DNA from: Nocardia nova SH22a | Lineage (GTDB): Bacteria > Actinomycetota > Actinomycetes > Mycobacteriales > Mycobacteriaceae | Reading direction: 5' to 3' | NCBI RefSeq assembly: GCF_000523235.1 | Contig: NZ_CP006850.1 | Coordinates: forward strand, 3,534,001-3,598,000 | Length of the DNA: 64,000 nt | Shown here: positions 838-62,876 of the stretch, piece after piece | Layout: the number at the start of each line of letters is the position of its first letter | Position numbering within the stretch: the stretch's first letter is position 1 | Translations under genes and position numbers: made by a program | Notes under the pieces: model-generated | Seen by the model: only the letters and a program-made list of their open reading frames with translations | What the model was told of the DNA's origin: nothing | The model's database searches: none

Positions 838-885
838 CGTCTCCGCTTTCGTTGCACAGGTCGCCGGTCGGCGCCGATTGACACG

Positions 886-937
886 GTATCACTGAGACTA
901 TAGTTTGCTATCGGATATACCGTATCAATGAGACTAT
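886..937. promoter_or_regulatory. Paired direct-repeat operator between padR and the SnoaL-like gene
   Basis: GTATCACTGAGACTAT at 886-901 is repeated as GTATCAATGAGACTAT at 922-937 (15 of 16 bases equal), 36 bp apart, in the divergent intergenic region. The second copy runs to within a few bases of the SnoaL-like start, so occupancy would block initiation. Assignment to the adjacent PadR protein is inference from position. Confidence 0.6.
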
Positions 938-946
938 GGAGTGATC

Positions 947-47969: not shown

Positions 47970-47999
47970 TAACTATTGCCATTACAGTGTGATTGACAA
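47970..47999 (-). promoter_or_regulatory. Probable promoter of the yrbE-mce operon
   Basis: Read leftward: TTGTCA at 47999-47994, an 18-bp spacer, TAGTTA at 47975-47970, with the yrbEA start 59 bp beyond. The 19-bp island palindrome covers the -35 element and most of the spacer, so bound protein would exclude RNA polymerase. Confidence 0.5.
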
Positions 48000-48001
48000 T
48001 A
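47983..48001. promoter_or_regulatory. Island operator 1 (TACAGT-N7-ACAATA), mce promoter
   Basis: Left half TACAGT is perfect, and the right half ACAATA has one mismatch to ACNGTA. It overlaps the -35 region of the mce operon promoter. One of seven copies of the TACNGT-N7-ACNGTA element in the island. Confidence 0.7.
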
Positions 48002-48125
48002 CAGTAGGGCGCCGCAACGGAGAAGCAATTTCCCGGGAAACATTTCCGGGAGCGGGCGAGGTGGCCCGGCGGCTCGACGGGGGTGTTTTCCGGTCGATAG
48101 CCGACACGCATTCCGGTTGCCCGGC

Positions 48126-49748
48126 TCAGCTATTGGAAGTTCCGTCGATCTGCTCGAATATCTTCCGCAATCCTCGCACGTCGACCTTGCCACTGGACAG
48201 CAGTGGAATGTCCGCGGTGGCGATCACGGCGAACCGGCCGGGAATCTTGTAAGCCGACAACCGGGTGCGGAGCTTTTCCCGCAGCGCGGTCTCGTCGAAT
48301 ATGCCAGGGTCGTCGAGGGCGAGCACCGCGGCGACCTGCTGTCCGCGGGTGGGATGGGGAAGGTCGAACACATGGGCCGCGGCGCCGGTGAGGTCGGTGA
48401 TCGCCTTCTCGACCTCGGCCGGTGCGACATTCGCGCCCGCGGTCTTGATCATGGCGCCGCTGCGGCCGAGAAAGTACACGAACCCGTCGGGGTCGATGCG
48501 CGCCAGATCGCCGGTGTGGAACCACCCGTCGGTGTCGAAGCACTCCTCGCGACCGCGCTTGTGATAGCCCCGCATGAGGTGGGGGCCGCGGAAGCGGAGT
48601 TCGCCGACCTCACCGGCCGGTACGGGCGCGCCGGTGCGCGGGTCGGCGATCTGGGTGTCGAAGCCGGGTGCGGGGCGGCCGAAGGAGCCGCGCCGGGATT
48701 CGGGTTGATCCGATTCGTCGCCGTCGATCAGGACCACGCTCCCGGTCTCGGTCATGCCGAGCATATTGTGCCGGAGCTCCGGATCGGCGGGGCGTAGTTC
48801 CGCGGGCATGATCGGGTAGAGGTTGCCGCGCCGCATCGAGGACAGGTCACGCGAGCCGAAGTCCGGATGCTGCGCGAGGTGCGCGACACCGGCCGCGAAA
48901 CCGTTGGTGACAGTGGGCCTTTCGGCCTCCAGCAGGTCGAGGGTGGCACCGGCGTCGGTGGCGTTGCTGCATACCAGCGTCGAGCCCGCAACCACGGTGG
49001 CCAGCAGGCCGAAAGCGAACCCGCCGATCCAGAAGAACGGCGAATTGCAGAACAGCACATCGGATTCGGTCAGGCCGCGGATCCGGTTGAGATTGCGCTG
49101 ATGTTCCAGCAGTGCCGCGTGCGTGTGCACGACGCCTTTGGGCGCGCTCGTCGAGCCCGAGGTGTAGACGATGGCCAGCCGATCGCAGCCGTCGACATCC
49201 GCTTCGGCCGCCGAGAGCAACGCGCCGTCGACGTTCGTCGCCGCCTGCCGTACCGACCCGATGCCGTGGGGGCCGAGCGCGCCGTCGACGGCGACCCGGC
49301 GCAGCTGCGGCACGTCCGGGCAGAACACGCGGCCGGTCCGGTCGCGCTCGCCACCGGCGAGTATCTCGGTCAGGCGCTGTGCGTAGTCGTGGGAGCGGTA
49401 GCGACCGGTGGCCAGCAGGATGTGAGTGTCGCTGTGTACCAGCTGTTCTCGCAACTCCCGCGCCGTGGAGAAGGTGGAGTGGGGGACGACCACGGCTCCG
49501 ATGCGGGCCGCGGCGAGGGCGCCGACGACGAAGTCGGCGCCGTTGGGGTAGAGCAGTCCGACGTGGGTTCCCTTTCCCGCGCCGAGGGCGAGCAGTCCGC
49601 GCGCCAGTTCGGCGGAATCGCGTTCCGCTTCGGAATAGGTGAGTCGTTCCGCGTCGCAGATCAGCACTGGGCGGTCGGGATCGGCCGCTGCCCGGGCGCG
49701 CAGCAGCGCTGCCAGGGTGGTGGTGCCGGTAGCGGGAGTGTCCGTCAC
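48126..49748 (-). CDS. AMP-forming acyl-CoA synthetase (FadD-like) 1
   Basis: A 540-residue ANL-superfamily ligase that would activate a carboxylic acid to its CoA thioester. The phosphate loop is AIVYTSGSTSAPKGVVHTHA, in which the usual second glycine is serine. Also present are GMTETGSVVLIDGDES, the DTDGWFHTGDLARIDPDGFV hinge region, and the C-terminal catalytic lysine in LLSSGKVDVRGLRK. GTG 49748 has GAGGAG seven bases upstream and overlaps the preceding enoyl-CoA hydratase-like gene by tens of bases less than the longer frame to 49781. The pair forms an operon under the operator at 50631. Confidence 0.92.
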   Translation of the reverse strand: MTDTPATGTTTLAALLRARAAADPDRPVLICDAERLTYSEAERDSAELARGLLALGAGKGTHVGLLYPNGADFVVGALAAARIGAVVVPHSTFSTARELREQLVHSDTHILLATGRYRSHDYAQRLTEILAGGERDRTGRVFCPDVPQLRRVAVDGALGPHGIGSVRQAATNVDGALLSAAEADVDGCDRLAIVYTSGSTSAPKGVVHTHAALLEHQRNLNRIRGLTESDVLFCNSPFFWIGGFAFGLLATVVAGSTLVCSNATDAGATLDLLEAERPTVTNGFAAGVAHLAQHPDFGSRDLSSMRRGNLYPIMPAELRPADPELRHNMLGMTETGSVVLIDGDESDQPESRRGSFGRPAPGFDTQIADPRTGAPVPAGEVGELRFRGPHLMRGYHKRGREECFDTDGWFHTGDLARIDPDGFVYFLGRSGAMIKTAGANVAPAEVEKAITDLTGAAAHVFDLPHPTRGQQVAAVLALDDPGIFDETALREKLRTRLSAYKIPGRFAVIATADIPLLSSGKVDVRGLRKIFEQIDGTSNS

Positions 49749-49777
49749 GTGATCGCTCCTCGACAGCACCGGAGATC

Positions 49778-50596
49778 TCAACGGCCTCGGAAGTCCGGCG
49801 CACGCCGCTCCCGGAAGGCGGCCAGACCTTCCTTGAAATCGCTTGTGCGGCAGGCTAGTTCGAGATCGTACAGTTCCTGGTTCAACGACTGGCCGAGCGT
49901 GGCGTGCTGGCCGTAGGCCAGTGCCTGTTTGGCCAGTCCGATGGCGACCGTGGGCCCGGTGGCGAGCCGGTCCAGCAAGGCCGCGACGGCGCCGTCCACG
50001 TCACCGGCGGGGACGCAGCGATCGATCAGGCCCCAGTCGGCCGCCTCGGCGGCGCCGATCTTCTCGCCGAGCAAGAGCATCCGCTTGGCCCTGGTCAGTC
50101 CGATCAGCCTGGGCAGCAGCCAGGTGGAGCCCGAGTCCGGACTGAAGCCCCGGGTCAGGAAGGGCTCCCAGAACACGGCGTCGTCGGCGGCGACGGTGAA
50201 GTCCGCTGCCAGCGCGAGATTGCAACCCAGACCGGCTGCCCAGCCCCGGACGCCGCAGACGACGGGAAGCTGAATGGTGTGCAGCAACTCGATCACCCGG
50301 TGCGCGGTGTGCGGGATGCGCCGCACCAGATCGCCGGTTCGGGGACGAGGCCCGTCGGCGTTGTTGGTCGACACCCAGTCCACGCCGGAGCAGAAGTCGG
50401 GACCGTTGCCGCCCAGGTGAATCGCGCGCAACTCCGGATCGCTCGCGGCGGCGGTCAAGGTCGCCACGAGGGTGTCGATCATCGCGGGGGCGAGTGAATT
50501 CTTCGCACCGGGACGGTCGATGAGCAGGTGCAGGATCGCGCCTTCGCGGCGCACGAGGACTTTTCCGGCCGCGGGCGCCGCGGTGTCCCGACTCAC
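49778..50596 (-). CDS. Crotonase-fold enzyme, PaaG-like isomerase type
   Basis: A 272-residue enoyl-CoA hydratase/isomerase family member. The oxyanion-hole segments FCSGVDWV and GWAAGLGCNLALAADF are present. The first hydratase glutamate is replaced (GCN), while the second site reads FSPDSGSTWLLPRLIG, where an aspartate replaces glutamate. This D-x-G-x-TWLLP pattern is that of PaaG-type isomerases rather than true hydratases. It may shift double bonds in a CoA-bound intermediate. It starts at GTG 50596 and precedes the FadD-like gene. It is divergent from the thioesterase over a shared operator. Confidence 0.88.
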   Translation of the reverse strand: MSRDTAAPAAGKVLVRREGAILHLLIDRPGAKNSLAPAMIDTLVATLTAAASDPELRAIHLGGNGPDFCSGVDWVSTNNADGPRPRTGDLVRRIPHTAHRVIELLHTIQLPVVCGVRGWAAGLGCNLALAADFTVAADDAVFWEPFLTRGFSPDSGSTWLLPRLIGLTRAKRMLLLGEKIGAAEAADWGLIDRCVPAGDVDGAVAALLDRLATGPTVAIGLAKQALAYGQHATLGQSLNQELYDLELACRTSDFKEGLAAFRERRAPDFRGR

Positions 50597-50630
50597 TGTT
50601 CCCGCCTGTCACGGACGATACTGCTGTACA

Positions 50631-50649
50631 TACGGTATATGCTACCGTA
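50631..50649. promoter_or_regulatory. Island operator 2 (TACGGT-N7-ACCGTA), perfect
   Basis: A perfect copy that extends one more base each side (ATACGGTA-N5-TACCGTAT, 50630-50650). It lies in the 103-bp divergent gap between the PaaG-like gene and the thioesterase gene, 34 bp from one start and 50 bp from the other. Confidence 0.82.
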
Positions 50650-50699
50650 TCGCTTTGGATCAGCCTGGCGACCAGTCGCCGGAGACGAAAAGAGGGCTC

Positions 50700-51389
50700 A
50701 TGCCGGAGTTTCCACGGTCCGATACGGGAGCGCCGAGTGCCCGGTTCGGTGCGCAGCCACTGGCGCAGACCCGCGAAGCGGCCGCCGCGCTGCGCCGGCT
50801 CACCGGGCTGCTGCTGTCGCAGGAACATCCACACACGGCGGTCGGGGAGTTGCTCGTGATGGCGCGGCAGTGGGAAAACGCACTGTCGGCAACGGCGCCT
50901 ACCGACAACGCGCCGCGCATCGGCGACGCCGGTGAGAACCGGCGCATCTACCTCGACCACGCCTTCGACATCGGTGGCTACAACCCGTGCTTTCCCGAAT
51001 ATCGATTCGATCGTGTCGATCCGGAGCGGGCCGAAGGGCGGGTGAACTTCCCGCTGCCGTTCGAGGGGCCGCCGGGGCTGGTGCACGGCGGATTTCTCGG
51101 TGTCTTCTTCGATTGCGTGGTCCAGCAACACAATTGCTCGGTCGGCCCGGCGGGGAAGACGCGATCGCTGACGGTGACCTATCGTCGTCCGGCGCCGCTG
51201 TTGACAGACCTGCGATTCGAGATCGACCGGTCCGCGGGGGAGCGGTCCATCGCTTCGACCGCCCGGCTGCTGCAGGGGGACACGGTGCTGTGTTCGGGTG
51301 CGGTCGAAGCGGTCGCCGCCGCCCCGAAGACGCTGGCGGGGGCGAGCTACGGCGAGCGCAGGCCGATGCCCGACCGGCCGAGCGAGTAG
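50700..51389 (+). CDS. Hotdog-fold thioesterase (PaaI/4HBT-like)
   Basis: A 229-residue protein. The C-terminal 150 residues form a hotdog domain: RVNFPLPFEGPPGLVHGGFLGVFFD, the GxVHGGxxxxxFD motif of PaaI/4HBT thioesterases, and TRSLTVTYRRPAPL, the second strand. The N-terminal 70 residues are helical and unusual. It would hydrolyse an acyl-CoA to free CoA during catabolism, probably to rescue stalled intermediates. ATG 50700 follows AGAGGG by four bases. It is divergent from the isomerase/ligase operon with one operator between them. Confidence 0.83.
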   Translation: MPEFPRSDTGAPSARFGAQPLAQTREAAAALRRLTGLLLSQEHPHTAVGELLVMARQWENALSATAPTDNAPRIGDAGENRRIYLDHAFDIGGYNPCFPEYRFDRVDPERAEGRVNFPLPFEGPPGLVHGGFLGVFFDCVVQQHNCSVGPAGKTRSLTVTYRRPAPLLTDLRFEIDRSAGERSIASTARLLQGDTVLCSGAVEAVAAAPKTLAGASYGERRPMPDRPSE

Positions 51390-51428
51390 CGCGGCGCCGG
51401 AGCCGCGCTGCGCCATGATCCGCTGTGG

Positions 51429-51866
51429 TCAGGCCGCGCGGTTGCCGGGGTCCGGCGAGGTGAAGAACATGCTCATGCCCGCCGGACTCAGAGCGTCGCC
51501 GAGTGCAATGAAATCGACTGTGCCCGTGGAGTTCCGGGCGGCGTCGGCGAGTTCCTCGTAACCGTGGTCGGGCAGTAGTGCGCGGTGTATCCGGATCAGA
51601 TCGGTATCGAGGGAGCGGCCGCGGCGCCCGGCCTCGGTGAGCAGGAGGTGCAGGCACAGTTGCTCGGCCGGGGTGCCCGGACGGGGGGCCTGCCCGAGTT
51701 CGAGTTGTCCGCGCAGTGCGAGGAAGCTCTGTTCGAGATAGTGCAGGAAGACCGGCCGCGGACTGTGCAGCAGTTTGGCGCGCACCTGTCCGGCCAGCCC
51801 GTCGGCGGCGTTCAGCAGTGCCGCGATGGTGTGCGGGGTGAGTCCGGGAATCGGCTTGTCGCTCAT
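51429..51866 (-). CDS. Protein of unknown function, island-regulated
   Basis: A 145-residue soluble protein of almost wholly helical character (TPHTIAALLNAADGLAGQVR, FLHYLEQSFLALRGQLELGQ, EQLCLHLLLTEAGRRGRSLD). No catalytic motif, signal peptide or membrane segment is visible, and I do not recognise the family. ATG 51866 has AGGAG five bases upstream. It stands as its own transcription unit with a -35/-10 pair and an island operator upstream, so it belongs to the catabolic regulon despite having no known role. It might be a chaperone, accessory or sensor protein. Confidence 0.75.
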   Translation of the reverse strand: MSDKPIPGLTPHTIAALLNAADGLAGQVRAKLLHSPRPVFLHYLEQSFLALRGQLELGQAPRPGTPAEQLCLHLLLTEAGRRGRSLDTDLIRIHRALLPDHGYEELADAARNSTGTVDFIALGDALSPAGMSMFFTSPDPGNRAA

Positions 51867-51955
51867 ATCGTCTCCTGTTCAGGGGCCTGCGGTGGTGGCT
51901 GCCCCGGAACCGGCCGGTGGTCGCGCAGCTACCGGACACGACTTCCTGTTGAGCT

Positions 51956-51974
51956 AACTGTAACTACTACCGCA
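51956..51974. promoter_or_regulatory. Island operator 3 (AACTGT-N7-ACCGCA)
   Basis: Matches TACNGT-N7-ACNGTA with one mismatch in each half. It covers the -10 element and most of the spacer of the 145-residue gene's promoter, which supports a role as a repressor site. Confidence 0.6.
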
Positions 51975-51985
51975 AGTGTCGGCAA
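51957..51985 (-). promoter_or_regulatory. Promoter of the unknown 145-residue gene
   Basis: Read leftward: TTGCCG at 51985-51980, a 17-bp spacer and TACAGT at 51962-51957. It overlaps the island operator at 51956-51974. Confidence 0.55.
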
Positions 51986-52035
51986 GGGTGCGGTACGCCC
52001 GGATCGAGGGTTCGGCCCGCGATCCGGGCGCGCGA

Positions 52036-52857
52036 TCAGTACTGGGTGGACCCGAGGTCGACCGCGATCGCCGCGGCGGTCACGAATCGCGCGTCGTCGC
52101 TGGCGAGCCAGGCGACCGTGGCGGCCACATCCTCCGGTTCGGCGATCCACGCGGGCAGGAACGGTGTGATCATCTGGGCCAGTGCCGGATTGGACTCCAG
52201 GGTCCGGCCCAGGTTGGCGACCATCTCACCGCCGCCCATCGGGGTGTTGACGGCGCCGGGATGCACGCTGTTCACCCGGATCGAATGCTTTCCGAGTTCG
52301 GCGGCCAATGCCCTGGCCATACCGGTGACGGCATGTTTGCTCGCGGTGTAGTGCACCATGAACGGCTGCATCTTCAGTCCCGCGGCGGAACTGATCAGCG
52401 AAATCGATCCGCCGCGGCCGCCGTCGATGATGTACTTGGCTCCGGCGGCAACGGTGTTCCAGGTGCCGGTGACGTTGATGTCGAGGACGTCGCGGAAGGA
52501 TTCGGGGGTGATCTCGTCCCATGTCTGGGGTGCGCAGATGCCGGCATTCGCCACGATGGTGTCGAGACGGCCCAGTGCGGCCACCCCCTCCGAGACGACC
52601 TTGCGCAGACCGTCGAGATCGCGAGTGTCGACCTGACCGGCGATGATGCGGCGTCCGCTCTGCTCCACCAGGCGCACGGTCTCGTCGAGGTCGTCCGGTG
52701 TGGCCGAGTCGTACGGCACCGCCGGGGGCAGCGGGCCGGCGATGTCGACGGCGATGATGTCGGCGCCCTCGGCGGCCAGGCGCAGGGCATGCGCCCGGCC
52801 CTGGCCTCGCGCCGCTCCGGTGATGAAAGCGACCTTGCCGTCGTGTCGGCTCGTCAC
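52036..52857 (-). CDS. Mycofactocin-type short-chain dehydrogenase (carveol-dehydrogenase-like)
   Basis: A 273-residue SDR. VAFITGAARGQGRAHALRLAAEGADIIAVDI is the N-terminal signature of the mycofactocin-coupled SDR family (TIGR03971), which includes carveol dehydrogenase; the family's insertion DLDETVRLVEQSGRRIIAGQ follows. NAG is in TIVANAGICAP and the active site SS-x10-YTASK. These enzymes hold NAD tightly and pass electrons to the peptide cofactor mycofactocin. It probably oxidises a secondary alcohol of a cyclic substrate. It is divergent from the aldehyde dehydrogenase with two island operators between them. Confidence 0.92.
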   Translation of the reverse strand: MTSRHDGKVAFITGAARGQGRAHALRLAAEGADIIAVDIAGPLPPAVPYDSATPDDLDETVRLVEQSGRRIIAGQVDTRDLDGLRKVVSEGVAALGRLDTIVANAGICAPQTWDEITPESFRDVLDINVTGTWNTVAAGAKYIIDGGRGGSISLISSAAGLKMQPFMVHYTASKHAVTGMARALAAELGKHSIRVNSVHPGAVNTPMGGGEMVANLGRTLESNPALAQMITPFLPAWIAEPEDVAATVAWLASDDARFVTAAAIAVDLGSTQY

Positions 52858-52892
52858 GTGCCCTCCTGGCTGTTGCTGAATGTCGTCGTGTG

Positions 52893-52911
52893 TATCGTAA
52901 GTTCAACGGTA
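52893..52911. promoter_or_regulatory. Island operator 4 (TATCGT-N7-ACGGTA)
   Basis: Right half perfect, left half with one mismatch. It lies 36 bp upstream of the mycofactocin-type SDR start. Confidence 0.65.
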
Positions 52912-53018
52912 CCTGTGCGGAAGCCGTATTTCGCGGCTGGTGGACCCGCCGTCGTGCGGTCCCTCGATCACGCTGTCCCATTGTGGAAATCCCCGCCACC
53001 AGCGACCGTAGTTGATGT

Positions 53019-53037
53019 TACAGTTTGACTTACCGGA
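53019..53037. promoter_or_regulatory. Island operator 5 (TACAGT-N7-ACCGGA)
   Basis: Left half perfect, right half with one mismatch. It lies 73 bp upstream of the aldehyde dehydrogenase start. The two operators are 126 bp apart in this 252-bp divergent gap, one for each direction. Confidence 0.65.
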
Positions 53038-53109
53038 TATGTCACTGGCTCACCTTCTCCGAAGGTCTGCCGGGGTGATCGCCGGGTTCGCGAAGAGGAG
53101 AAGGCACGG

Positions 53110-54606
53110 ATGAACAGCGATGCCGTCGCGCCGGTCGGCGAAGCCGAACCGGTGGGTGCCGCCGATACCGACGCCGCGACGCTGTTGCAGTTGCAGCGCC
53201 GCGCCTTTCTGCAGGAGGGACCGCCGTCGGCCGCGGTCCGTCGCCATCGCATCGATCGCCTGCTGGCCATGGTGCTCGACAACATCGACGACTACGTCGA
53301 CGCCCTGGTGGCCGATTTCGGTACCCGCTCACGCACCGGCGTCCTGTTCGCCGAGATCATGGGCATGCTGACCACGATCGAGCACACCCGGTCGCACATC
53401 GACCGGTGGATGCGCCCGCGGAATCCGAAACCCCTTGCGCGCCTGTACGGTATCCGCGCGCAGGTGCGGCCGACCCCGCTGGGCGTGGTGGGTGTCATCG
53501 GGCCGTGGAACTTTCCGCTGCAACTGGTCGTGGTTCCCGCCGCGGCGGCCTTCGCCGCCGGCAACCGGGTCATGATCAAGATGTCGGAGGTCACCGCGCA
53601 CACCGCGGAACTGACCCGTACGCTCGCGCCGTCCTACTTCGACCCGGCCGAACTCGCCGTGGTCACGGGCGGACCGGATGTCGCGGCCGCGTTCTCCGCC
53701 TTGCCGTTCGACCACGTGTTCTTCACCGGATCCACCCGGGTCGGCCGCCTGGTGCAGCGCGCGGCGGCCGACAATCTGGTTCCGGTGACGCTCGAGCTCG
53801 GTGGCAAGAACCCGGTGATCGTGGCGCCGGACGCCGACCTGAACCGCGCCGCGGCCCGCATCGCGCGCGCCCGGCTGGTCAACAGCGGGCAGGTCTGCGT
53901 GAGTCCCGACTACGTCTTCGTGCCGCGGGAGCGGGTCGACGCGTTCGTCGCGGAGACCCGCGCGGCATTTCGCCGGCTGGTCCCCGAGATCGTCGGCAAC
54001 GCCGACTACACCGCCTGTGTCGATCAGGCCAATTACGAGCGCATCATCGGCCTGATCGAGGACGCGCGGACACGCGGCGCGCGTGTCGAGGAGGTGGTCC
54101 CGTCCGGCGAGAAGCTGCCCGATCCCGGGCTGCGCAAGATCGCCCCGACCATCGTGCGCGATGTCACCGACGACATGGCGATCGCCACCGAGGAGGTCTT
54201 CGGACCGGTCCTCGTGGTACGCCCGTACTCGACTCCGGGTGAGGTCGCCACGGTGCTCAACGCCGGTCCGGCGCCGCTGGTCGCGTACTGGTACGGGCCC
54301 GACGGCGCGGAATTCCGCGAATTCGTGCGCAGCACCCGCAGCGGCGGTGTCTCCCGGAACGACTTCGCGCTGAACATGTTTCCCGAGGACGCGCCGTTCG
54401 GCGGCATCGGGGACAGCGGAATGGGCGCCTATCGCGGCAAGGCCGGTTTCGACACCTTCACCCACTACCGCACCGTGGTCGGCACCGATCTGCCGTTCGT
54501 CATCACCGCGCTGGCCGCCCCGCCGTTCGGCGCCGGCCTGCGGCGCGGCATCGATCTGGCGCTGCGCACGGCCCGCCGACGCACCCACCGCCGCCTGAAT
54601 CCATGA
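53110..54606 (+). CDS. Aldehyde dehydrogenase, coniferyl-aldehyde-dehydrogenase type
   Basis: A 498-residue aldehyde dehydrogenase. VIGPWNFPLQLVVVPAAAAF is the cofactor helix region, glutamate base in VTLELGGKNPVIVA, catalytic cysteine in NSGQVCVSPDYVFV. The missing tetramer tail and the FGGIGDSGMGAYRGKAGFDT ending put it with class 3/coniferyl-type enzymes, which use bulky or aromatic aldehydes. The C-terminus has an extra hydrophobic/basic stretch (TARRRTHRRLNP) that may favour membrane contact. ATG 53110 follows GAGAAGG. It probably oxidises the aldehyde formed from a P450/SDR product, feeding the acyl-CoA ligase encoded just downstream. Confidence 0.9.
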   Translation: MNSDAVAPVGEAEPVGAADTDAATLLQLQRRAFLQEGPPSAAVRRHRIDRLLAMVLDNIDDYVDALVADFGTRSRTGVLFAEIMGMLTTIEHTRSHIDRWMRPRNPKPLARLYGIRAQVRPTPLGVVGVIGPWNFPLQLVVVPAAAAFAAGNRVMIKMSEVTAHTAELTRTLAPSYFDPAELAVVTGGPDVAAAFSALPFDHVFFTGSTRVGRLVQRAAADNLVPVTLELGGKNPVIVAPDADLNRAAARIARARLVNSGQVCVSPDYVFVPRERVDAFVAETRAAFRRLVPEIVGNADYTACVDQANYERIIGLIEDARTRGARVEEVVPSGEKLPDPGLRKIAPTIVRDVTDDMAIATEEVFGPVLVVRPYSTPGEVATVLNAGPAPLVAYWYGPDGAEFREFVRSTRSGGVSRNDFALNMFPEDAPFGGIGDSGMGAYRGKAGFDTFTHYRTVVGTDLPFVITALAAPPFGAGLRRGIDLALRTARRRTHRRLNP

Positions 54607-54697
54607 GCACACCGCCCCGCGCTCGACGTGCGCGGGAGTATTTCCAGTCGACACCTTTCGCTTGCGTTCGCGCGGCGGACAACCGAAGGAGGCACCG

Positions 54698-56371: not shown

Positions 56372-56390
56372 GCGGACCGAATATGACGCA

Positions 56391-56427
56391 GCGCTGCGGC
56401 GGGCCGGAAACCGGCCCGCCGCAGCGC
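56391..56427. terminator. 17-bp perfect hairpin between convergent ligase genes
   Basis: GCGCTGCGGCGGGCCGG (56391-56407) pairs exactly with 56411-56427 over a three-base AAA loop and is followed by TTT. It lies between the convergent ligases ending at 56371 and 56440. The strongest terminator structure in the window. Confidence 0.88.
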
Positions 56428-56439
56428 TTTCCGGTGTGA

Positions 56440-57954
56440 CTACGCGGAGTCCTCGTCGGCGGTGGTCTCGAAGTGGGCGCGCACCGCCGGGAGATCGGCC
56501 TTGCCCGAGGGGGTGCGTGGGATGGCGGGGACGACCACGATCTCGGCGGGAACCTCATAGGGAGCCAACCGCTGTCGAAGATGCGCCAGGAGCGCGGTGA
56601 TGTCGACGGCCGGGCCGTTCGCCGGTTCGACCAGTGCGACCGGGACCTCGCCGAGGCGCGGATCGGGCCGGGCGACGACCGCGGCGTTCAGGACCGCCGG
56701 ATGGCTTTCCAGCGCGGTGCGCACATCGTCGGGCATGATCTTGAATCCGCCGCGAATGACGGCCTGATCCGCCCGTCCCAGGATCCACAGGAATCCGTCG
56801 GCGTCGATGCGGGCCAGATCGGTCGTGCGCATCCAGGTCGCGGACGGGCCGAGCTGACCGGGGGCGACCTCGAGCAGACCCGGTTGCCCGGACGGCAGCT
56901 CCGCTCCGCTGTCCTCGTCGACCACGCGCAGCCGGGCCCCGCCGGTGGCACGTCCGACGCTGCCGCGCTTGTCCTGCCGATGCCGTCGAAAATCGGCAAG
57001 GGTCCAGCCGGCCACGCCGCCGCCGAATTCCGTTGCGGCATAGGAGGTCAGCACCGGGATGCCGAACTTTTCGTGGAACGCGTCGGCGTCGTCGGCGGAC
57101 AGCGCTGCGGTGCCGGAGGTGACCACCCGGATACTCGACAGGTCGTCGCGGGAGAGGTCCGAACGCAGGACGGCGCGCAGCGCCGCGGGTACCAGTGACA
57201 CCGCCTTGGGCCGGTGGTCACGCACCGCCCGGGCCCACGGTTCGAGCCGGAAGCGCGGCAGCAACACGAACGGGCGGGCCTCGGCGACGCACTGCAGGAC
57301 GCGGAAGACGCCGCCGATGTGCACCAGCGGCGCGTTGACGATGGCGACACCTGTGCGTGGCCGGTCCGGCGCCGGTGCGTTGTCGGGGTCGGGGCTGATA
57401 ACGCTGCGCGCGAGCATGTCGTAGGTGAGATCGACCCGTTTGGGCGGTCCGGTGGTGCCGCTGGTCAGCATTCGCACCGCCACACCGGGCTGCGCGGCGC
57501 CGGTCGATATCCGGCGCCCGGGAGCCACCCGCAGGCGCGGTTCGGCGGTCGTACCCTCGACGGCCAGTGTCGCGGTGCCCGGCGCCGCCGTGACCAGCGC
57601 GGCCAGATCGCCGGGTGCGCCGATGATCAGCGGTAGCCGCAGTGCGGCGATATCGGCGCGGGTGCGCTCGTCACCCCTGGACGGGTTGATCACCACGACG
57701 GTCCCGCCGCCCAGCAATGTCGCGAGCAGGGCCGCGACGTGTTCGGGACGGTTGCGCAGCAGAATCCCGATCTGCCTGCGGCCCAGGGGATATGCGGTGA
57801 CGAAGGTGCGGATGTGGTGCGCGAGATCGGCCAGCTCGCGGCGGCTGACCCACTGCCGCTCGAATTCGAGCGCCGGGCCATCGGGTCGCAGCGCCAGGGC
57901 GGCGGCGATCCGGCGGCTCAGCGCGTGCGTGGTGTAGCTCGTCGGCACGGCCAT
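56440..57954 (-). CDS. AMP-forming acyl-CoA synthetase (class I adenylate-forming) 3
   Basis: A 504-residue ANL ligase: phosphate loop RMLTSGTTGPPKRVDLTYDM, LTSYAATEFGGGVAGWTLAD as the A5-type motif, DLARIDADGFLWILGRADQA, and catalytic lysine in RTPSGKADLPAV. It differs clearly from the other two ligases and probably has a different acid as substrate, for example a ring-degradation product. ATG 57954 has AGGAGAGG eight bases upstream. It is divergent from a crotonase gene, and the gap has a perfect island operator. Confidence 0.9.
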   Translation of the reverse strand: MAVPTSYTTHALSRRIAAALALRPDGPALEFERQWVSRRELADLAHHIRTFVTAYPLGRRQIGILLRNRPEHVAALLATLLGGGTVVVINPSRGDERTRADIAALRLPLIIGAPGDLAALVTAAPGTATLAVEGTTAEPRLRVAPGRRISTGAAQPGVAVRMLTSGTTGPPKRVDLTYDMLARSVISPDPDNAPAPDRPRTGVAIVNAPLVHIGGVFRVLQCVAEARPFVLLPRFRLEPWARAVRDHRPKAVSLVPAALRAVLRSDLSRDDLSSIRVVTSGTAALSADDADAFHEKFGIPVLTSYAATEFGGGVAGWTLADFRRHRQDKRGSVGRATGGARLRVVDEDSGAELPSGQPGLLEVAPGQLGPSATWMRTTDLARIDADGFLWILGRADQAVIRGGFKIMPDDVRTALESHPAVLNAAVVARPDPRLGEVPVALVEPANGPAVDITALLAHLRQRLAPYEVPAEIVVVPAIPRTPSGKADLPAVRAHFETTADEDSA

Positions 57955-57986
57955 CGCGGCGTCCTCTCCTGTTATCACAGCCCTGA

Positions 57987-58005
57987 TACTGTTATATATA
58001 CAGTA
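57987..58005. promoter_or_regulatory. Island operator 6 (TACTGT-N7-ACAGTA), perfect
   Basis: A perfect copy with an all-AT centre, TATATAT, in the 137-bp divergent gap between ligase 3 and the crotonase gene. It overlaps the most AT-rich stretch of the gap, where the -10 elements of both directions should lie. Confidence 0.82.
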
Positions 58006-58091
58006 GACAGTACCGTCAGCGTCCCGGCAATGATGAGAACGATCGGTTACGTCACATCCGGCCGCGCGATGAACCAGGAAGAGGCAACCCG

Positions 58092-58997
58092 ATGAGCAGC
58101 TCCAGTACCGCCGGCGGACGCGTACTCTACGAAGTGGATCCGGACCGCCGGATCGCCACCGTCACGCTCAACAATCCCGCCCAGCGCAATTCCTACGACG
58201 CGGCCATGCGCGACGGCCTGGCTCGCTACCTGGACGAGGCCGCCGAGGACGACGACATCGTCGTCGTTCTGCTGCGCGGCGCCGAGGGCGTGTTCAGCAC
58301 CGGCGCCGATATGAACAACGCGTACGGCTGGTACGGGGAACGCGCCGCGAACAACGGCAACGGTGACAAGCCGACGAAGGGCCGGCCCAGCCAGCGCCGC
58401 CGCCTCACGGTCGACCGGAAATCCTTCGGCTTCTACCACAACTTCATGGGCTTCCCGAAGGTCACCGTCGGTGAGATCAGCGGCTACGCGCTGGGCGGCG
58501 GCTTCGAAATGGCCTTGATGACAGATATTTCGGTGATCGCCCGCGACACCCGCATCGGCATGCCCGCCGCCCGCTTCCTCGGACCCGCGCTGGGCAGTCT
58601 GCACATGTTCTTCCACCGCCTCGGGCCGGTCCTGGCGCGTCGGCTGCTGCTGACCGGCGACATCGTCGAGGTGAGCACGCTGGAACATCTCGGCGTCTTC
58701 ACCGAGGTCTGCGATCCGGCGGCGGTGGGCGCGCGCGCCCGGTACTGGGCGGAGAAGGCCGCGAAGATGCCCGCCGACGGAGTGGTGATCGCCAAGGAGG
58801 CGTTCCGCCTGGTGGAGCAGAGTCAGGTCTATCAGGGCGAAGAGGTGGCCAGCTACCTGTTCCACGCCTTCGGCACGAATCTGCAGTTCTCCCAGGGGGA
58901 GTTCAACTTCGTCAAGACTCGTGCCGAACACGGCACCAAGGCGGCGTTCCGGCTGCGCGACGAGCACTTCCACGTCGCGGAGTCGGAACAGGGCTAG
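58092..58997 (+). CDS. Crotonase-fold enoyl-CoA hydratase-like protein
   Basis: A 301-residue crotonase. Oxyanion segments FSTGADMNNAYGWYG and GYALGGGFEMALMTDISVIA are present. The first hydratase glutamate is kept (GGFEMAL), but the second site reads RIGMPAARFLGPALGS, with no glutamate or aspartate. A 20-residue insertion (ERAANNGNGDKPTKGRPSQR) separates the oxyanion strand from the next helix, more than in standard hydratases. It may be a hydratase with single-acid chemistry, a hydrolase or an isomerase. ATG 58092 follows GAAGAGG. Confidence 0.88.
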   Translation: MSSSSTAGGRVLYEVDPDRRIATVTLNNPAQRNSYDAAMRDGLARYLDEAAEDDDIVVVLLRGAEGVFSTGADMNNAYGWYGERAANNGNGDKPTKGRPSQRRRLTVDRKSFGFYHNFMGFPKVTVGEISGYALGGGFEMALMTDISVIARDTRIGMPAARFLGPALGSLHMFFHRLGPVLARRLLLTGDIVEVSTLEHLGVFTEVCDPAAVGARARYWAEKAAKMPADGVVIAKEAFRLVEQSQVYQGEEVASYLFHAFGTNLQFSQGEFNFVKTRAEHGTKAAFRLRDEHFHVAESEQG

Positions 58998-59076
58998 CTC
59001 GCGCCGGCGTGGTGCGGCGGCCGTCGGCTCGCCGCCGCACCGACCCGCCGCGATGCCGGACGCACCGGAATCGGAT

Positions 59077-59886
59077 TCACGTCAGGCCGCCGGTACCCCA
59101 CGCTCCGGTGAAGACGGGATCGCGTTTCTCGGCGAATGCCGCGAACGCCTCGATGACATCGGCACCGGAGAGGTTGATCGTCTGCGCCCGCAGCTCGTCG
59201 GTGAGCGCGTCCCGCAGGGTGCGGTCGGCGCTGTTGTTGACCAGCGCCTTCGTCTGAGCGAGGGCCAGGGGTGGTCCGGCCGCGAGCCGGTCGGCGATCC
59301 CCTCGGTGAAGGTGTCGATCGACTCCTCGGGCTGTACCCAGGTGACCAGGCCCAGGGAGTACGCCTCCTCGGCGCCGATGGTGTCGGCCAGCAGGGTGAG
59401 GCGCTTGGCCTGTTGCAGGCCGACGAGTTTGGGCAGCAACCAGCTTCCGCCGCAGTCGGGTGACAGCGCTCGTCGGGTGAAGATCTGGCAGAAGCGGGCG
59501 CCGGGGGCGGCGACCACCAGATCGCAGCCGAGGGCGATGTTCCAGCCCGCCCCGGCCGCCACGCCCCGCACCTTGGCGATGGTGGGCACGGGCAGATCGT
59601 GCAGTTGCTGGATGACGTCGTTGATGCCGCGGATCATCCGGCTCGGATCCGAAAACCCCTCCGCGCCCGCGGCATCGGAGAGATCCGCTCCCGAACAGAA
59701 GTTTCCCGCCGCCCCGGTGACGATCACCGCGCGGACGTCGTTGCCCCGCGCGACCGCGTGCAGGGCCGCGCCCAACTCGTCCCACAGTCGCGTGTCGACG
59801 GCGTTCTTGAGCTGCGGGCGGTTCAGGGTCAGCGTCAGTACGCCGCCGGATCGGCTCTGCAGCAACGGCTCTGATGGTTCCGTCAC
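59077..59886 (-). CDS. Crotonase-fold enzyme, PaaG-like isomerase type (second)
   Basis: A 269-residue crotonase. GNFCSGADLSDAAG and GVAAGAGWNIALGCDLVVAA give the oxyanion hole; the first glutamate is replaced (WNIAL) and the second site is LSPDCGGSWLLPKLVGL, the PaaG-type aspartate pattern shared with the enzyme at 49778-50596. The two look like paralogues with a common ancestor in this island. Its start overlaps the CaiB/BaiF stop (ATGA). Last gene of a leftward operon of four. Confidence 0.9.
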   Translation of the reverse strand: MTEPSEPLLQSRSGGVLTLTLNRPQLKNAVDTRLWDELGAALHAVARGNDVRAVIVTGAAGNFCSGADLSDAAGAEGFSDPSRMIRGINDVIQQLHDLPVPTIAKVRGVAAGAGWNIALGCDLVVAAPGARFCQIFTRRALSPDCGGSWLLPKLVGLQQAKRLTLLADTIGAEEAYSLGLVTWVQPEESIDTFTEGIADRLAAGPPLALAQTKALVNNSADRTLRDALTDELRAQTINLSGADVIEAFAAFAEKRDPVFTGAWGTGGLT

Positions 59887-61127
59887 GGTGTCGTCCTCTC
59901 ATGTACGGTGGCGCCCAGAACGCCACGCTCACGCAGGTCGCTGATCTCGCGGGCGTCGAATCCCGCGGCGAGCAGGGCGCTGTCGGTGTGTTCGCCCAGC
60001 GCCGGAACGGCGCCCATCGGCGGCTCGTAACCCGAGACGACAGGCGGCGGGAGCAGCCCCGGCACCTGCCCGGCCGGAGTGCCGACCTGCCGCCAGCGCT
60101 CGCGTGCCGCCAGATGCGGGTGGGCGTTCACCTCGCTGGGAGTGTTGTATCGGGAGTTGCCGATGCCCGCGGCATCGGCCGTCGCCTGGACGGTCGCCAG
60201 ATCGTGTCCGGCGCACCACCGCGCGATCGCCTCGTCGAGTTCGGCGCGGTGGCGCACTCGTGCGGCGTTGGTGGCGAAGCGGGGGTCGTCCGCGAGGTCG
60301 TCGCGGCGGAGGATGTCGCGAGCCAGTCGCTGCCATTCCCGGTCGTTGGTGGTACCGAGCACCACGGTCGCGCCGTCGGCGGTGGGGTAGGCGCCGTAGG
60401 GGGAGACCGCCGGTGAGCTCATCCCGAGGGGCTGCTGGTCGACGCCGGTGTGCCGGGTGTAGGTCAGCGCGTAACCCATGATCTCGACCGCGGTGTCGAA
60501 CAGGCTCACCGTGGCCGTGGAATGTCGAAGACTGTGGGGCGCAACGGATTCGGTCCGCGCTCGTTCGCAGAGCAACGCGAGTACGGTGAGCGCCGCGTAC
60601 AGGCCGGAGCACACGTCGGCGATCGGCGGGCCGGGTTTGGCGGGCGTGCCCGCGGTCCCGGTGACCGCGCAGACCCCGGCCTCGGCCTGGATCAGCAGAT
60701 CGTAGGCCCGTTTGTGGGACAACGGCCCGCCCGGCCCGTAGCCGTCGATGTTCATCACGATCAGGTCGGGGTGGCGTCGCGTGAGCTCGTCGGTTCCGAG
60801 CCCGAGCGCCTCGACCGCGCCCGGCGCCAGATTCGAGACGAACACGTCGGCCTCCGCCAGGAGCCGGTGCGCGACCTCGATCCCGTCGCGATGTTTGAGG
60901 TCCAGGGTCACCGATTCCTTGCCTCGGTTGGCCCAGACGAAATGGGCGGCGAGGCCGCCGACCACGTCGTCGTAGTACCGGGCGAAGTCACCGCCGCGCG
61001 GATTCTCGATCTTGATCACCCGGGCCCCGAAATCGGCGAGCGTGCGCGTGCACATCGGAGCGGAGACGGCCTGCTCCAACGCCACCACCGTGATGCCCGT
61101 CAGGGGGCCCGCGGTTGCGTCGCTCAT
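59883..61127 (-). CDS. CaiB/BaiF family III CoA-transferase (second)
   Basis: A 414-residue CoA-transferase. ITVVALEQAVSAPMCTRTLADFGARVIKIE is the CoA-binding start; GDFARYYDDVVGGLAAHFVWANRGKESVTLDLK is the classical NRGK segment; the catalytic aspartate is in GPPIADVCSGLYAALTVLA. Canonical length and motifs suggest an active transferase (or racemase). It is better conserved than the mce-linked copy. The start overlaps the SDR stop by one base (TGATG), and its stop overlaps the crotonase start. It probably exchanges CoA between a pathway acid and a product acyl-CoA, saving ATP. Confidence 0.92.
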   Translation of the reverse strand: MSDATAGPLTGITVVALEQAVSAPMCTRTLADFGARVIKIENPRGGDFARYYDDVVGGLAAHFVWANRGKESVTLDLKHRDGIEVAHRLLAEADVFVSNLAPGAVEALGLGTDELTRRHPDLIVMNIDGYGPGGPLSHKRAYDLLIQAEAGVCAVTGTAGTPAKPGPPIADVCSGLYAALTVLALLCERARTESVAPHSLRHSTATVSLFDTAVEIMGYALTYTRHTGVDQQPLGMSSPAVSPYGAYPTADGATVVLGTTNDREWQRLARDILRRDDLADDPRFATNAARVRHRAELDEAIARWCAGHDLATVQATADAAGIGNSRYNTPSEVNAHPHLAARERWRQVGTPAGQVPGLLPPPVVSGYEPPMGAVPALGEHTDSALLAAGFDAREISDLRERGVLGATVHERTTP

Positions 61128-61891
61128 CACATCACCAGGCCGCCGTCGACCGCCAGTACCTGGCCGGTGACGTAGGAGGCGGCATCCGAGGCGAGGAAGA
61201 CGAACGCTCCGGCGACCTCGTCGGGGTCGGCCCATCGGCGCATCGGGATCCGGGCCAGCATCTGTTCGGCGAATTTCGGGTCGGTGCGGATGGTTTCGGT
61301 CATGGGCGTCGCGGCGGCGGGCGCGAGGGCGTTGACCGTGATCTGTTTGCGTGCCAGTTCCTTGGCCAGCGATTTGGTCATGCCGACGATGGCCGACTTC
61401 GCCGCCGAGTAGTTGACCTGGCCGAGGGTGCCCACCAGACCGGCCGCGGAGGTCACATTGATGACGCGGCCGGTGCCGTCGGCGGGGAGGTGGGGCAGCG
61501 CCGCCCGAGTGCACCGGAACGCACCCAGGACATGGATGTCGAGCAGTCGCTGAACCGATTCCTCGGTGGTCTTGGCGAACATCGCCGGTGCGGTGACTCC
61601 GGCGTTGTTGACCACGATGTGCAGTGTGCCGCCGCCGAGTTCCGCGGCCGCGGCGGCGGCATGTTCGGCAGCCTCCGCGTCCCGGACGTCCAGCGCGATG
61701 CCCCGCGCTCGCCCGCCGTCGGCGGTGATCTTCTCGGCGGTCGCCGTCGCGGCCGCGGCATCGATATCCGTCGCCAGAACGGCGGCGCCCTGCTGGGCCA
61801 GCGCGGCGGCGACCGCCGCGCCGATACCACCCCCCGCGCCGGTGACCAGGGCCGCCCGCCCGGACAGGTCGAAACGATTACCAGTGGGCAT
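61127..61891 (-). CDS. Short-chain dehydrogenase (FabG-like)
   Basis: A 254-residue SDR with the classical set: ALVTGAGGGIGAAVAAALAQ, HIVVNNAGVTAP, VTSAAG and YSAAKSAIVGMTKSLAKELA. It resembles 3-oxoacyl-ACP/CoA reductases and 3-hydroxyacyl-CoA dehydrogenases, and so could carry out the hydroxyacyl-CoA oxidation step of the pathway. ATG 61891; the adjacent upstream SDR is 51 bp away. Linked in operon with CaiB/BaiF and a crotonase. Confidence 0.9.
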   Translation of the reverse strand: MPTGNRFDLSGRAALVTGAGGGIGAAVAAALAQQGAAVLATDIDAAAATATAEKITADGGRARGIALDVRDAEAAEHAAAAAAELGGGTLHIVVNNAGVTAPAMFAKTTEESVQRLLDIHVLGAFRCTRAALPHLPADGTGRVINVTSAAGLVGTLGQVNYSAAKSAIVGMTKSLAKELARKQITVNALAPAAATPMTETIRTDPKFAEQMLARIPMRRWADPDEVAGAFVFLASDAASYVTGQVLAVDGGLVM

Positions 61892-61942
61892 CCAGAACTC
61901 CTCGGGTGCTGCGTATTTCGGACAAGCGAAGAACAGGCGTCG

Positions 61943-62728
61943 CTACAGCTGAACCGGGGGCCCGGCGACCAGCGGGGCGACGAATCCGCCGTCGACGTGG
62001 ATGTCCTGACCGTTGACCCAGCGGGCCTGCCGAGAACCCAGGAAGGCGATGACGGGCACGATGTCGTCGACGGTGGCGTGGCGTCCGATCGTCGCCTTCA
62101 CCGTGTCGAGCACGTCCTTGCCCATCGACGCCTCGAAATCGACGAGGATCGGGGTCTCGGTGGGCCCGGGACTCACCGTGTTCACGCGGATTCCGTACTT
62201 CTGCCAGGCCACCGGCGCCAGCCGCTTGGCGAAGATGATCGCGGCCTGTTTCGAGGTGCTGTACACCGGATAGTTCGGGTCCTGCTCCGCCTGCCAGCGC
62301 TCGACCTCCTCCGGGTCGGTCGTCGCGAGCAGTCCGGACAGCGCCTCCACGCGCTCCTGCCAGCCGAGCGCCGCGACCGAGGCGACGGTCACGATCGCAC
62401 CGCCCTCGCGCAGCCGCGTCAGCATGCCCTCGGCCATCAGGCGCATGCCGAGGTAGTTCACCTTCAGGACGTCACCGGCCGGTGCGGTGCCGGGGACGCC
62501 CGCGACGTAGGCCAGCAGATCCCAGCCGGGCTCGATGCGCTCGAGCAGCGCGGCGACGGCGGACGGGTCGCGCAGATCGCACTGCTCGTGCCGCGCGGCC
62601 GGAGTGTCGTTGGGGCGCAAGTCGATTGCGAGCACATGATCGCCGCTGTCGTGGAAGTGCGCGGCGGTCGCGGCGCCGATCCCGGAGCCCGCCCCGACCA
62701 CGATGACCTTGCGTTGATCGGATCCCAT
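61943..62728 (-). CDS. Short-chain dehydrogenase, 3-alpha-hydroxysteroid-dehydrogenase-like
   Basis: A 261-residue SDR of the shorter 3-alpha-HSD/carbonyl reductase group. GAGSGIGAATAAHF binds the cofactor; a compact middle lacks the usual NNAG, with YVAGVPG in its place, as in Comamonas 3-alpha-HSD; TVASVAALGW and YSTSKQAAIIFAKRLAP give the triad, and PGPTETPIL is the C-terminal mark of the group. It probably oxidises a ring hydroxyl. ATG 62728 has GGTGGA four bases upstream; upstream extension is rejected. It is the first gene of a four-gene leftward operon, divergent from the P450. Confidence 0.9.
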   Translation of the reverse strand: MGSDQRKVIVVGAGSGIGAATAAHFHDSGDHVLAIDLRPNDTPAARHEQCDLRDPSAVAALLERIEPGWDLLAYVAGVPGTAPAGDVLKVNYLGMRLMAEGMLTRLREGGAIVTVASVAALGWQERVEALSGLLATTDPEEVERWQAEQDPNYPVYSTSKQAAIIFAKRLAPVAWQKYGIRVNTVSPGPTETPILVDFEASMGKDVLDTVKATIGRHATVDDIVPVIAFLGSRQARWVNGQDIHVDGGFVAPLVAGPPVQL

Positions 62729-62758
62729 GAATTCCACCGTTCGGTTGCTGAAGATAGT

Positions 62759-62777
62759 TATAGAATACTTGACAGTA
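62759..62777. promoter_or_regulatory. Island operator 7 (TATAGA-N7-ACAGTA)
   Basis: Right half perfect, left half with two mismatches: the weakest copy. It sits in the 148-bp divergent gap between the 3-alpha-HSD-like SDR and the P450, 31 bp from the SDR start. Confidence 0.5.
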
Positions 62778-62876
62778 AGCGCCACTATAAAGCACTCTGG
62801 TGGCCGCCACAACGGACCGCCGCGGCTGCGTAACGGTCTGGTGGACATGGAGACCCGCATACCGAAAGAGTCGCTC

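What the first reader, a model, noticed from the sequence alone, without database searches (positions are those of the whole stretch)
47983..62777. Seven copies of a 19-bp palindrome, TACNGT-N7-ACNGTA, mark every promoter of the mce/catabolic island
Sites seen directly: 47983-48001 (one mismatch), 50631-50649 (perfect), 51956-51974 (two), 52893-52911 (one), 53019-53037 (one), 57987-58005 (perfect) and 62759-62777 (two). All fall between genes, within 140 bp of start codons, and each of the six promoter regions of the 36-64 kb island contains at least one. In the mce promoter and the unknown-gene promoter they overlap the predicted -35/-10 elements. This points to one dimeric repressor controlling import and all catabolic units. 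The form differs from KstR and KstR2 boxes as I know them, so this may be an undescribed regulon.
Basis: seen in the sequence. Interest (0 to 1): 0.88.

Follow-up and report, generated by a model that had tools for sequence, protein, structure and literature searches.

The report
Shared switch of lipid-breakdown island
In a bacterium that is likely a Nocardia, the same DNA element, TACNGTA-like units exactly 12 bases apart, sits in front of genes predicted to import and break down an unidentified lipid-like compound, and it is likely the docking site of two related TetR-type repressors whose genes occur with the element across Nocardia genomes and lie beside it in Mycobacterium.

Summary
In detail: all seven sites are at the stated places with the stated mismatches. 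It is not chance: 12 is the only clearly enriched period, 19 of the genome's 55 two-unit sites fall in one 76-kb stretch (0.9% of the genome), and the copy before the mce genes is conserved in 9 of 9 Nocardia promoters. The regulon runs about 60 kb past the window. Two paralogous TetR genes lie there, each beside an array. In 67 of 79 scorable named loci an array before the TetR orthologue is among the locus's five best positions, and of 148 Nocardia genomes at least five sites occur in 26 of 28 with the TetR and 1 of 120 without. Two rival regulators fail that test. So: likely a TetR regulon for import plus catabolism, unlike KstR2, BkaR and Mce3R, and not found in the open-access papers searched. 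Binding, repression, inducer and substrate are untested.

The parts
47971..48001 (.). array 1 (three units, AACTATT-N5-TACAGTG-N5-GACAATA), before yrbEA and the mce operon
   Evidence: unit positions 98% conserved in 9 of 9 Nocardia orthologous promoters, own included; promoter-like sites on it
50619..50649 (.). array 2 (TACTGCT-N5-TACGGTA-N5-TACCGTA), between the divergent ECH/fadD unit and the 229-aa gene
   Evidence: an array stands upstream of the orthologue in 4 of 4 other genomes
51944..51974 (.). array 3 (TCCTGTT-N5-AACTGTA-N5-TACCGCA), before the 145-aa unknown gene
52881..52911 (.). array 4 (weak first unit TGTCGTC, then TATCGTA-N5-AACGGTA), before the mycofactocin-type SDR
53019..53049 (.). 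array 5 (TACAGTT-N5-TACCGGA-N5-CACTGGC), before ALDH and fadD
57987..58017 (.). array 6 (TACTGTT-N5-TACAGTA-N5-TACCGTC), between divergent fadD and ECH
   Evidence: best profile match in the genome (it is also a member of the training set)
62759..62789 (.). array 7 (TATAGAA-N5-GACAGTA-N5-CACTATA), between the SDR operon and the next + strand gene
   Evidence: near-identical arrays in L040, L043 and L045
47144..47911 (-). yrbEA, first gene of the mce operon (which runs to about 36904 and the TetR at 36245)
   Evidence: orthologue (E<=1e-110) in 9 of 148 Nocardia genomes, own included; the names yrbE and mce are from recall
36245..36880 (-). TetR-family gene at the end of the mce operon; rejected as the regulator that binds the arrays
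   Evidence: TetR_N; its distribution does not follow the arrays
48126..49781 (-). acyl-CoA synthetase (AMP-binding)
49778..50596 (-). enoyl-CoA hydratase family
50700..51389 (+). 229-aa protein without Pfam or NCBIfam match (hotdog thioesterase-like, by eye)
51429..51866 (-). 145-aa protein, no Pfam or NCBIfam match
52036..52857 (-). mycofactocin-coupled SDR
   Evidence: TIGR03971, 342 bits, cut-off 300
53110..54606 (+). aldehyde dehydrogenase
54662..56371 (+). acyl-CoA synthetase
56440..57978 (-). acyl-CoA synthetase-like (ATG start probably at 57953)
   Evidence: function read by eye
58092..58997 (+). enoyl-CoA hydratase-like
   Evidence: function read by eye
59077..62728 (-). probable operon of two SDR-like genes, a CaiB-type CoA transferase and an enoyl-CoA hydratase-like gene, reading away from array 7
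   Evidence: functions and operon read by eye

Best explanation
The seven sites are arrays of TACNGTA-like units at an exact 12-bp period, usually three units, and are likely operators bound by a conserved TetR-type repressor (two paralogues, encoded 18 and 55 kb past the window's end) that would switch the predicted mce importer and the surrounding predicted acyl-CoA catabolic genes together. Shown by sequence: the array form, its clustering, its place before starts, its conservation before orthologous genes and before TetR genes, and its co-occurrence with the TetR. Inferred: a TetR dimer spans two units (one helix-turn-helix per unit, dyad at the middle of the 5-bp spacer), because the central base of each unit is asymmetric and mirrored about that point; the third unit offers a second, overlapping register; binding over or beside the promoter blocks RNA polymerase; a pathway intermediate, perhaps an acyl-CoA, releases it; the TetR also controls its own gene.
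For: Array form: period 12; in 161 non-redundant two-unit sites from 80 named loci, a third unit with >=4 of 6 matches stands at -12 in 52 and at +24 in 40, against a mean of 3% at other offsets; a triple can be counted from both of its pairs. Clustering: 55 two-unit sites at <=2 mismatches in 8.35 Mb, 19 of them (16 separate arrays) in 76 kb; at <=1 mismatch 9 of 11. Profile search: 11 matches at E<=10 in 9 places, 8 in the cluster. mce promoter: 9 of 9 orthologues keep the array; unit positions 0.98, centres 0.89, spacers 0.78, flanks 0.70. Regulator: arrays upstream of own TetR-B (five units, one of them weak) and TetR-A; in 26 of 30 TetR loci an array scoring >=13 of 18 before the TetR (own included); with a matrix from own-genome arrays only, 67 of 79 scorable named TetR loci have an array in the 320 bp before the TetR that is among the five best of the locus, mostly about 20,000 positions (about 8% expected by arithmetic). 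Co-occurrence in 148 Nocardia genomes: >=5 sites in 26 of 28 with the TetR, 1 of 120 without; medians 10 and 1; Mann-Whitney p 1.3e-15; 9 of 9 mce genomes have the TetR. Dyad: oriented outer to inner, the central base is T in 134 and A in 38 of 260 half-sites. TetR_N, TetR_C_1 and TetR fold.
Against: No binding or expression data. The genomes are related, so p-values overstate independence, and the TetR is co-inherited with the gene cluster, so co-occurrence alone does not prove contact. Exceptions: G416 (TetR, 0 sites), G433 (TetR match over residues 1-186 only, 1 site), G342 (no TetR, 5 sites on three contigs). In one search, 12 of 79 loci miss the top five: four weak arrays with 5-10 better positions (L080, L081, L119, L146) and eight with no good array (L082, L083, L087, L092, L099, L105, L120, L156). 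In one search, four of 30 loci have only a weak array or none. The profile is weak (best E 0.007) and finds again only 8 of its own 17 own-genome training arrays. In the small own and kin sets another offset, +19, does as well as the 12-bp steps (5 of 19, 4 of 25). One perfect site (3279125) lies 300 kb away from the cluster. A 12-bp half-site distance is longer than in most TetR operators I recall. The 76-kb interval was chosen after seeing the sites.
Confidence: 0.82

Rival explanations
1. The sites are bound by the TetR encoded in the window at 36245-36880 (end of the mce operon); it works as a local KstR-like repressor.
For: It is a TetR_N protein in the mce operon, with weak similarity to the KstR model (34.6 bits, cut-off 280).
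Against: Homologues (E<=1e-40; 20 candidates scored per genome) are in 79 of 148 Nocardia genomes, 59 of these without TetR-A/B, and in none of eight site-bearing genomes (G003, G009, G014, G031, G287, G408, G414, G431; 6-11 sites each). No array stands directly before it.
Confidence: 0.05
2. Another regulator inherited with the cluster, for example the GntR-type gene at the edge of the mycobacterial clusters, binds the arrays, and the TetR proteins are passengers.
For: A GntR-like gene lies at the cluster edge in M. szulgai and M. palustre (by eye); the TetR and the cluster travel together.
Against: GntR homologues (E<=1e-40) occur in 12 of 148 Nocardia genomes, only 2 of them site-rich (G000, G380), and at 37-43% identity. 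The TetR is the regulator whose own promoter carries the array in both genera. Not every regulator of the cluster was tested this way.
Confidence: 0.07
3. The arrays are promoter elements or chance AT-rich words in intergenic DNA rather than operators.
For: TACNGTA resembles -10 boxes; promoter-like sites overlap array 1; many units are degenerate; one TetR-less genome has 5 sites.
Against: Exact 12-bp phasing, fewer than five sites in 119 of 120 Nocardia genomes without the TetR, and mirror asymmetry about the spacer are not expected of promoters.
Confidence: 0.04

Closest known systems
KstR2 regulon (TetR, cholesterol ring catabolism)
   Same: TetR repressor with a palindromic motif in its own and neighbouring divergent promoters of a lipid-catabolic cluster (passages of PMC3068626)
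   Different: 14-bp motif AnCAAGnnCTTGnT; no 12-bp phased units. For its sister KstR, NCBIfam's model gives 16 bits for TetR-A and is not listed for TetR-B (cut-off 280)
BkaR (Rv2506, TetR)
   Same: autoregulatory TetR of an acyl-CoA-related operon, its motif twice in its promoter (passages of PMC3920632)
   Different: 16-bp core GTTA(N)T(N4)A(N)TAAC, bound as a dimer; different motif and spacing
Mce3R
   Same: TetR-type regulator of an mce operon and lipid genes
   Different: double-TetR polypeptide on two 25-bp asymmetric, non-palindromic sites 53 bp apart (passages of PMC11667970); here single-TetR proteins of 274 and 293-307 aa and palindromic phased units
QacR and EthR type extended TetR operators
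   Same: operators longer or more complex than one simple palindrome (passage of PMC4482099)
   Different: unit sequence and 12-bp period; stoichiometry here unknown
Tetracycline repressor TetR (class B/D)
   Same: closest fold and among the closest sequences in the PDB, same C-terminal family PF02909
   Different: 22-27% identity in the fold matches; 15-bp operator (passage of PMC4482099); NCBIfam TetR equivalog cut-off 265, scores 77 and 80; most homologues here carry a basic C-terminal tail

Membership tests
TetR family transcriptional regulator (TetR-A, TetR-B) | N-terminal TetR_N helix-turn-helix | tested here: met
   PF00440 43.5 (A) and 37.4 (B) bits, cut-off 24
TetR family transcriptional regulator (TetR-A, TetR-B) | all-helical ligand-binding domain and TetR fold | tested here: met
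   PF02909 above cut-off for both; TetR-B model (mean pLDDT 77) matches TetR structures; TetR-A was not modelled
TetR family transcriptional regulator (TetR-A, TetR-B) | palindromic operator in its own promoter | tested here: met
   by sequence; some TetR-A-type genes inside operons have none
TetR family transcriptional regulator (TetR-A, TetR-B) | DNA binding as dimer, released by ligand | not testable with these tools
   needs protein
KstR | NCBIfam equivalog NF033703 at cut-off | tested here: not met
   16.2 bits for TetR-A, not listed for TetR-B; cut-off 280
KstR2 | operator AnCAAGnnCTTGnT | tested here: not met
   consensus from 130 pairs is TAC(T/G)GTA-N5-TAC(A/C)GTA; motif from PMC3068626
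BkaR | operator core GTTA(N)T(N4)A(N)TAAC | tested here: not met
   against PMC3920632
Mce3R | two TetR domains in one polypeptide, non-palindromic 25-bp sites | tested here: not met
   PMC11667970
TetR class B/D tetracycline repressor | NCBIfam equivalog NF010319 at cut-off | tested here: not met
   76.7 (B) and 80.3 (A) bits, cut-off 265

The most novel reading that the evidence does not exclude
The three-unit operator is a register switch: because each unit is a palindrome, two paralogous TetR proteins (or their heterodimer) compete for two overlapping 19-bp dyads that share the middle unit, so that the two paralogues, each perhaps with its own ligand, set different occupancy at each promoter of one giant catabolic regulon; the basic, disordered C-terminal tail found in most homologues clamps neighbouring DNA.
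Probability: 0.15. Interest if true: 0.8.

Novelty: new variant of a known kind. Interest (0 to 1): 0.62.

Why it matters
It ties an uncharacterised gene cluster (mce importer, many acyl-CoA enzymes, a KshA-like Rieske oxygenase, a cytochrome P450, thiolases) to one likely regulator type and one readable operator, in Nocardia and in many mycobacteria. The operator can serve as a genome-wide tag: a gene behind a phased array becomes a candidate member of the pathway, and derepressing the TetR, or finding its ligand, would point to the unknown substrate. The 12-bp, usually three-unit layout also poses a clean structural question about how TetR dimers share half-sites.

Tried and rejected
A pattern of the bare core ACNGT three times at 12 bp is too unspecific genome-wide: 478 places per strand at <=2 mismatches against 172 for the reversed control (the places were not examined further, apart from the few in the cluster). 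The reversed control of the two-unit pattern is commoner than the pattern itself in the own genome at <=2 mismatches (130 against 55) and in many Nocardia genomes at <=1, so I rest on clustering and co-occurrence, not on that control. The site at 8104113 lies in a long frame that looks like PKS (by eye), taken as chance. The perfect site at 3279125 with a weaker one at 3284973 stands near other TetR-like genes; not followed. Window TetR 36245 and the mycobacterial GntR were tested as rivals and rejected. The idea that each TACNGTA is the centre of its own dimer was set aside for the mirrored asymmetry of the central base and because neighbouring helix-turn-helices would fall in one groove (reasoning, not modelled). 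Paper searches (open-access library, listings seen; one search lists 20 of 78 papers) showed no paper on this motif or regulon, for the literal motif, found one unrelated paper. The passages seen for Rv0767c gave no motif. Whether M. tuberculosis has an orthologue of the TetR was not determined. The substrate was not identified; hints at steroid-, terpenoid- or aromatic-like chemistry but no more.
Full report
OBSERVATION. The seven reported sites exist exactly as described, and the pattern is over-represented in the window (19 matches at <=2 mismatches, 5.9 expected, 0 of 100 shuffles reach 19). The matches overlap at 12-bp steps. Scoring every 7-mer of the window against TACNGTA and testing every period from 8 to 30, only 12 stands out: 8 three-unit positions with at least 13 of 18 matches, against 0-3 at other periods. 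All seven arrays lie in intergenic DNA within about 120 bp of a start codon and, by my reading, serve ten transcription units (arrays 2, 6 and 7 lie between divergent genes).

HOW MANY UNITS. Taking two-unit sites (>=10 of 12) from 80 named TetR loci (161 non-redundant), a third good unit (>=4 of 6) stands at -12 in 52 and at +24 in 40; at other offsets the mean is 3% (a triple can enter through both of its pairs). The same two offsets have the highest mean scores in the own-genome set (19 sites) and in kin islands (25 sites), on small numbers (5 and 3; 6 and 7 good third units), where offset +19 also has 5 of 19 and 4 of 25. One step further out there is no clear excess (4 of 161 at -24, 10 of 161 at +36). 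Three units, 31 bp, is the usual form; pairs occur, and five units, one of them weak, stand before TetR-B. Among 130 strong pairs the consensus is TAC(T/G)GTA-N5-TAC(A/C)GTA; oriented outer to inner the central base is T in 134, A in 38, G in 66 and C in 22 of 260 half-sites.

GENOME-WIDE. The window is 3,534,001-3,598,000 of an 8.35-Mb chromosome. The two-unit pattern at <=2 mismatches has 55 places; 19 lie between 3,584,619 and 3,657,653 (16 separate arrays); at <=1 mismatch 9 of 11 do. A sequence profile of 30 arrays (17 own, 13 kin) finds 11 matches at E<=10 in nine places, eight in the cluster, all eight being training members; the best E is 0.007 and nine own training arrays are not found again. 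The regulon thus appears to continue about 60 kb past the window, over thiolases, amidohydrolases, a P450, a KshA-like Rieske oxygenase, a ferredoxin reductase-like protein, CoA transferases, FadD and ECH genes (Pfam for eight of these proteins; the others read by eye).

CONSERVATION. The 229-aa gene at 50700 has orthologues in 4 of 59 other genomes searched, all four with TACTGAT-N5-TACAGTA-N5-TACCGTT upstream. yrbEA orthologues (E<=1e-110) occur in 9 of 148 Nocardia genomes, own included; all nine keep the array, its start 79-83 bp before the ribosome-binding-like CTGGAGG, with unit positions 0.98, centres 0.89, spacers 0.78 and flanks 0.70 conserved (the alignment is ungapped and anchored on the arrays, which favours the units somewhat).

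REGULATOR. Two TetR genes lie in the extended cluster: TetR-A (L037:381-1262, minus; a longer start at 1304 is possible) with an array 100-150 bp upstream, and TetR-B (L039:5391-6215, minus) with a five-unit array starting 36 bp upstream. They are 66% identical, carry TetR_N and TetR_C_1 and, for TetR-B, a TetR fold. TetR-B homologues (E<=1e-35) are in 40 of 298 genomes of the order and in 80 kept named loci of Nocardia, Mycobacterium, Mycolicibacterium, Aldersonia and a record labelled Williamsia (best 80 of 306). Of 30 loci scanned with 1.5-kb flanks, own included, 26 show an array of at least 13 of 18 before the TetR, commonly TACCAAA-N5-TACGATA-N5-TACAGTA; L066 shows none at the threshold and L051, L052 and L072 only weak ones. 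With a matrix trained only on 18 own arrays, an array within 320 bp upstream is among the five best positions in 67 of 79 scorable named loci (one of 80, L137, starts too near the contig end); about 8% would be expected by arithmetic. It is the single best in 7, and in most mycobacterial loci it ranks second, with a better array elsewhere in the locus. In the two mycobacterial loci laid out gene by gene a similar catabolic cluster carries further arrays.

CO-OCCURRENCE. In the same 148 Nocardia genomes, the TetR (E<=1e-60) is in 28. At least five two-unit sites (<=1 mismatch) occur in 26 of these 28 and in 1 of the 120 others; medians 10 and 1. Exceptions are G416, G433 and G342. All nine mce genomes have the TetR. 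Rivals: the window TetR is in 79 of 148, 59 of these without TetR-A/B, and missing from eight of the 28; the mycobacterial GntR is in 12 of 148, two of them site-rich.

MECHANISM. Most likely a TetR dimer binds two units, the third giving a second register, over or next to the promoter, and is released by a pathway intermediate. Position over a promoter-like site is seen only at the mce array. Binding, repression, inducer, autoregulation and stoichiometry are inferred. Most homologues carry a basic, low-confidence C-terminal tail (net charge >=+3 in 34 of 37 proteins read, two of the 37 being repeats of the same gene; pLDDT <50 at residues 254-274 of TetR-B); its role is unknown.

KNOWN OR NEW. 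KstR2, BkaR and Mce3R operators, from passages read, differ, and family models do not place the TetRs with KstR or with TetR proper. Balhana et al. (PMC4482099, passages) give motif logos for some 30 conserved, divergently oriented mycobacterial TetR genes; the logos are figures and were not seen, so an overlap cannot be fully excluded. The searches named under Tried and rejected found no description of this motif; only open-access papers were searched.

Noticed in passing
window 882-940: A different direct repeat, CGGTATCACTGAGACTATAG and CCGTATCAATGAGACTATGG, 36 bp apart (three 12-bp steps), upstream of a possible small gene starting near 948; perhaps the operator of another regulator.
   Followed up: no
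L037:381-1262 and L039:5391-6215 and homologues: C-terminal Lys/Arg/Ala-rich tails on TetR proteins, reminiscent of histone H1-like tails: net charge >=+3 in 34 of 37; not in three TetR-A-type proteins (L040, L042, L044).
   Followed up: partly
G000:3279125-3279143 (L171:8125) and 3284973 (L171:13973): A perfect two-unit site and a weaker one 6 kb away, near other TetR-like genes, 300 kb from the cluster.
   Followed up: partly
   Followed up: partly
window 36245-36880: TetR gene at the end of the mce operon; its two closest homologues among 148 genomes (62-66% identity) are in two other mce genomes (G344, G400). Its target is unknown.
   Followed up: partly
window 52036-52857: The SDR behind array 4 is of the mycofactocin-coupled type, and the TetRs show weak similarity to the mycofactocin regulator MftR2 (37-39 bits, cut-off 285): a hint that the pathway may use mycofactocin.
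   Followed up: no
window 12536-13423: Gene that by eye looks like a secreted class A beta-lactamase.
   Followed up: no
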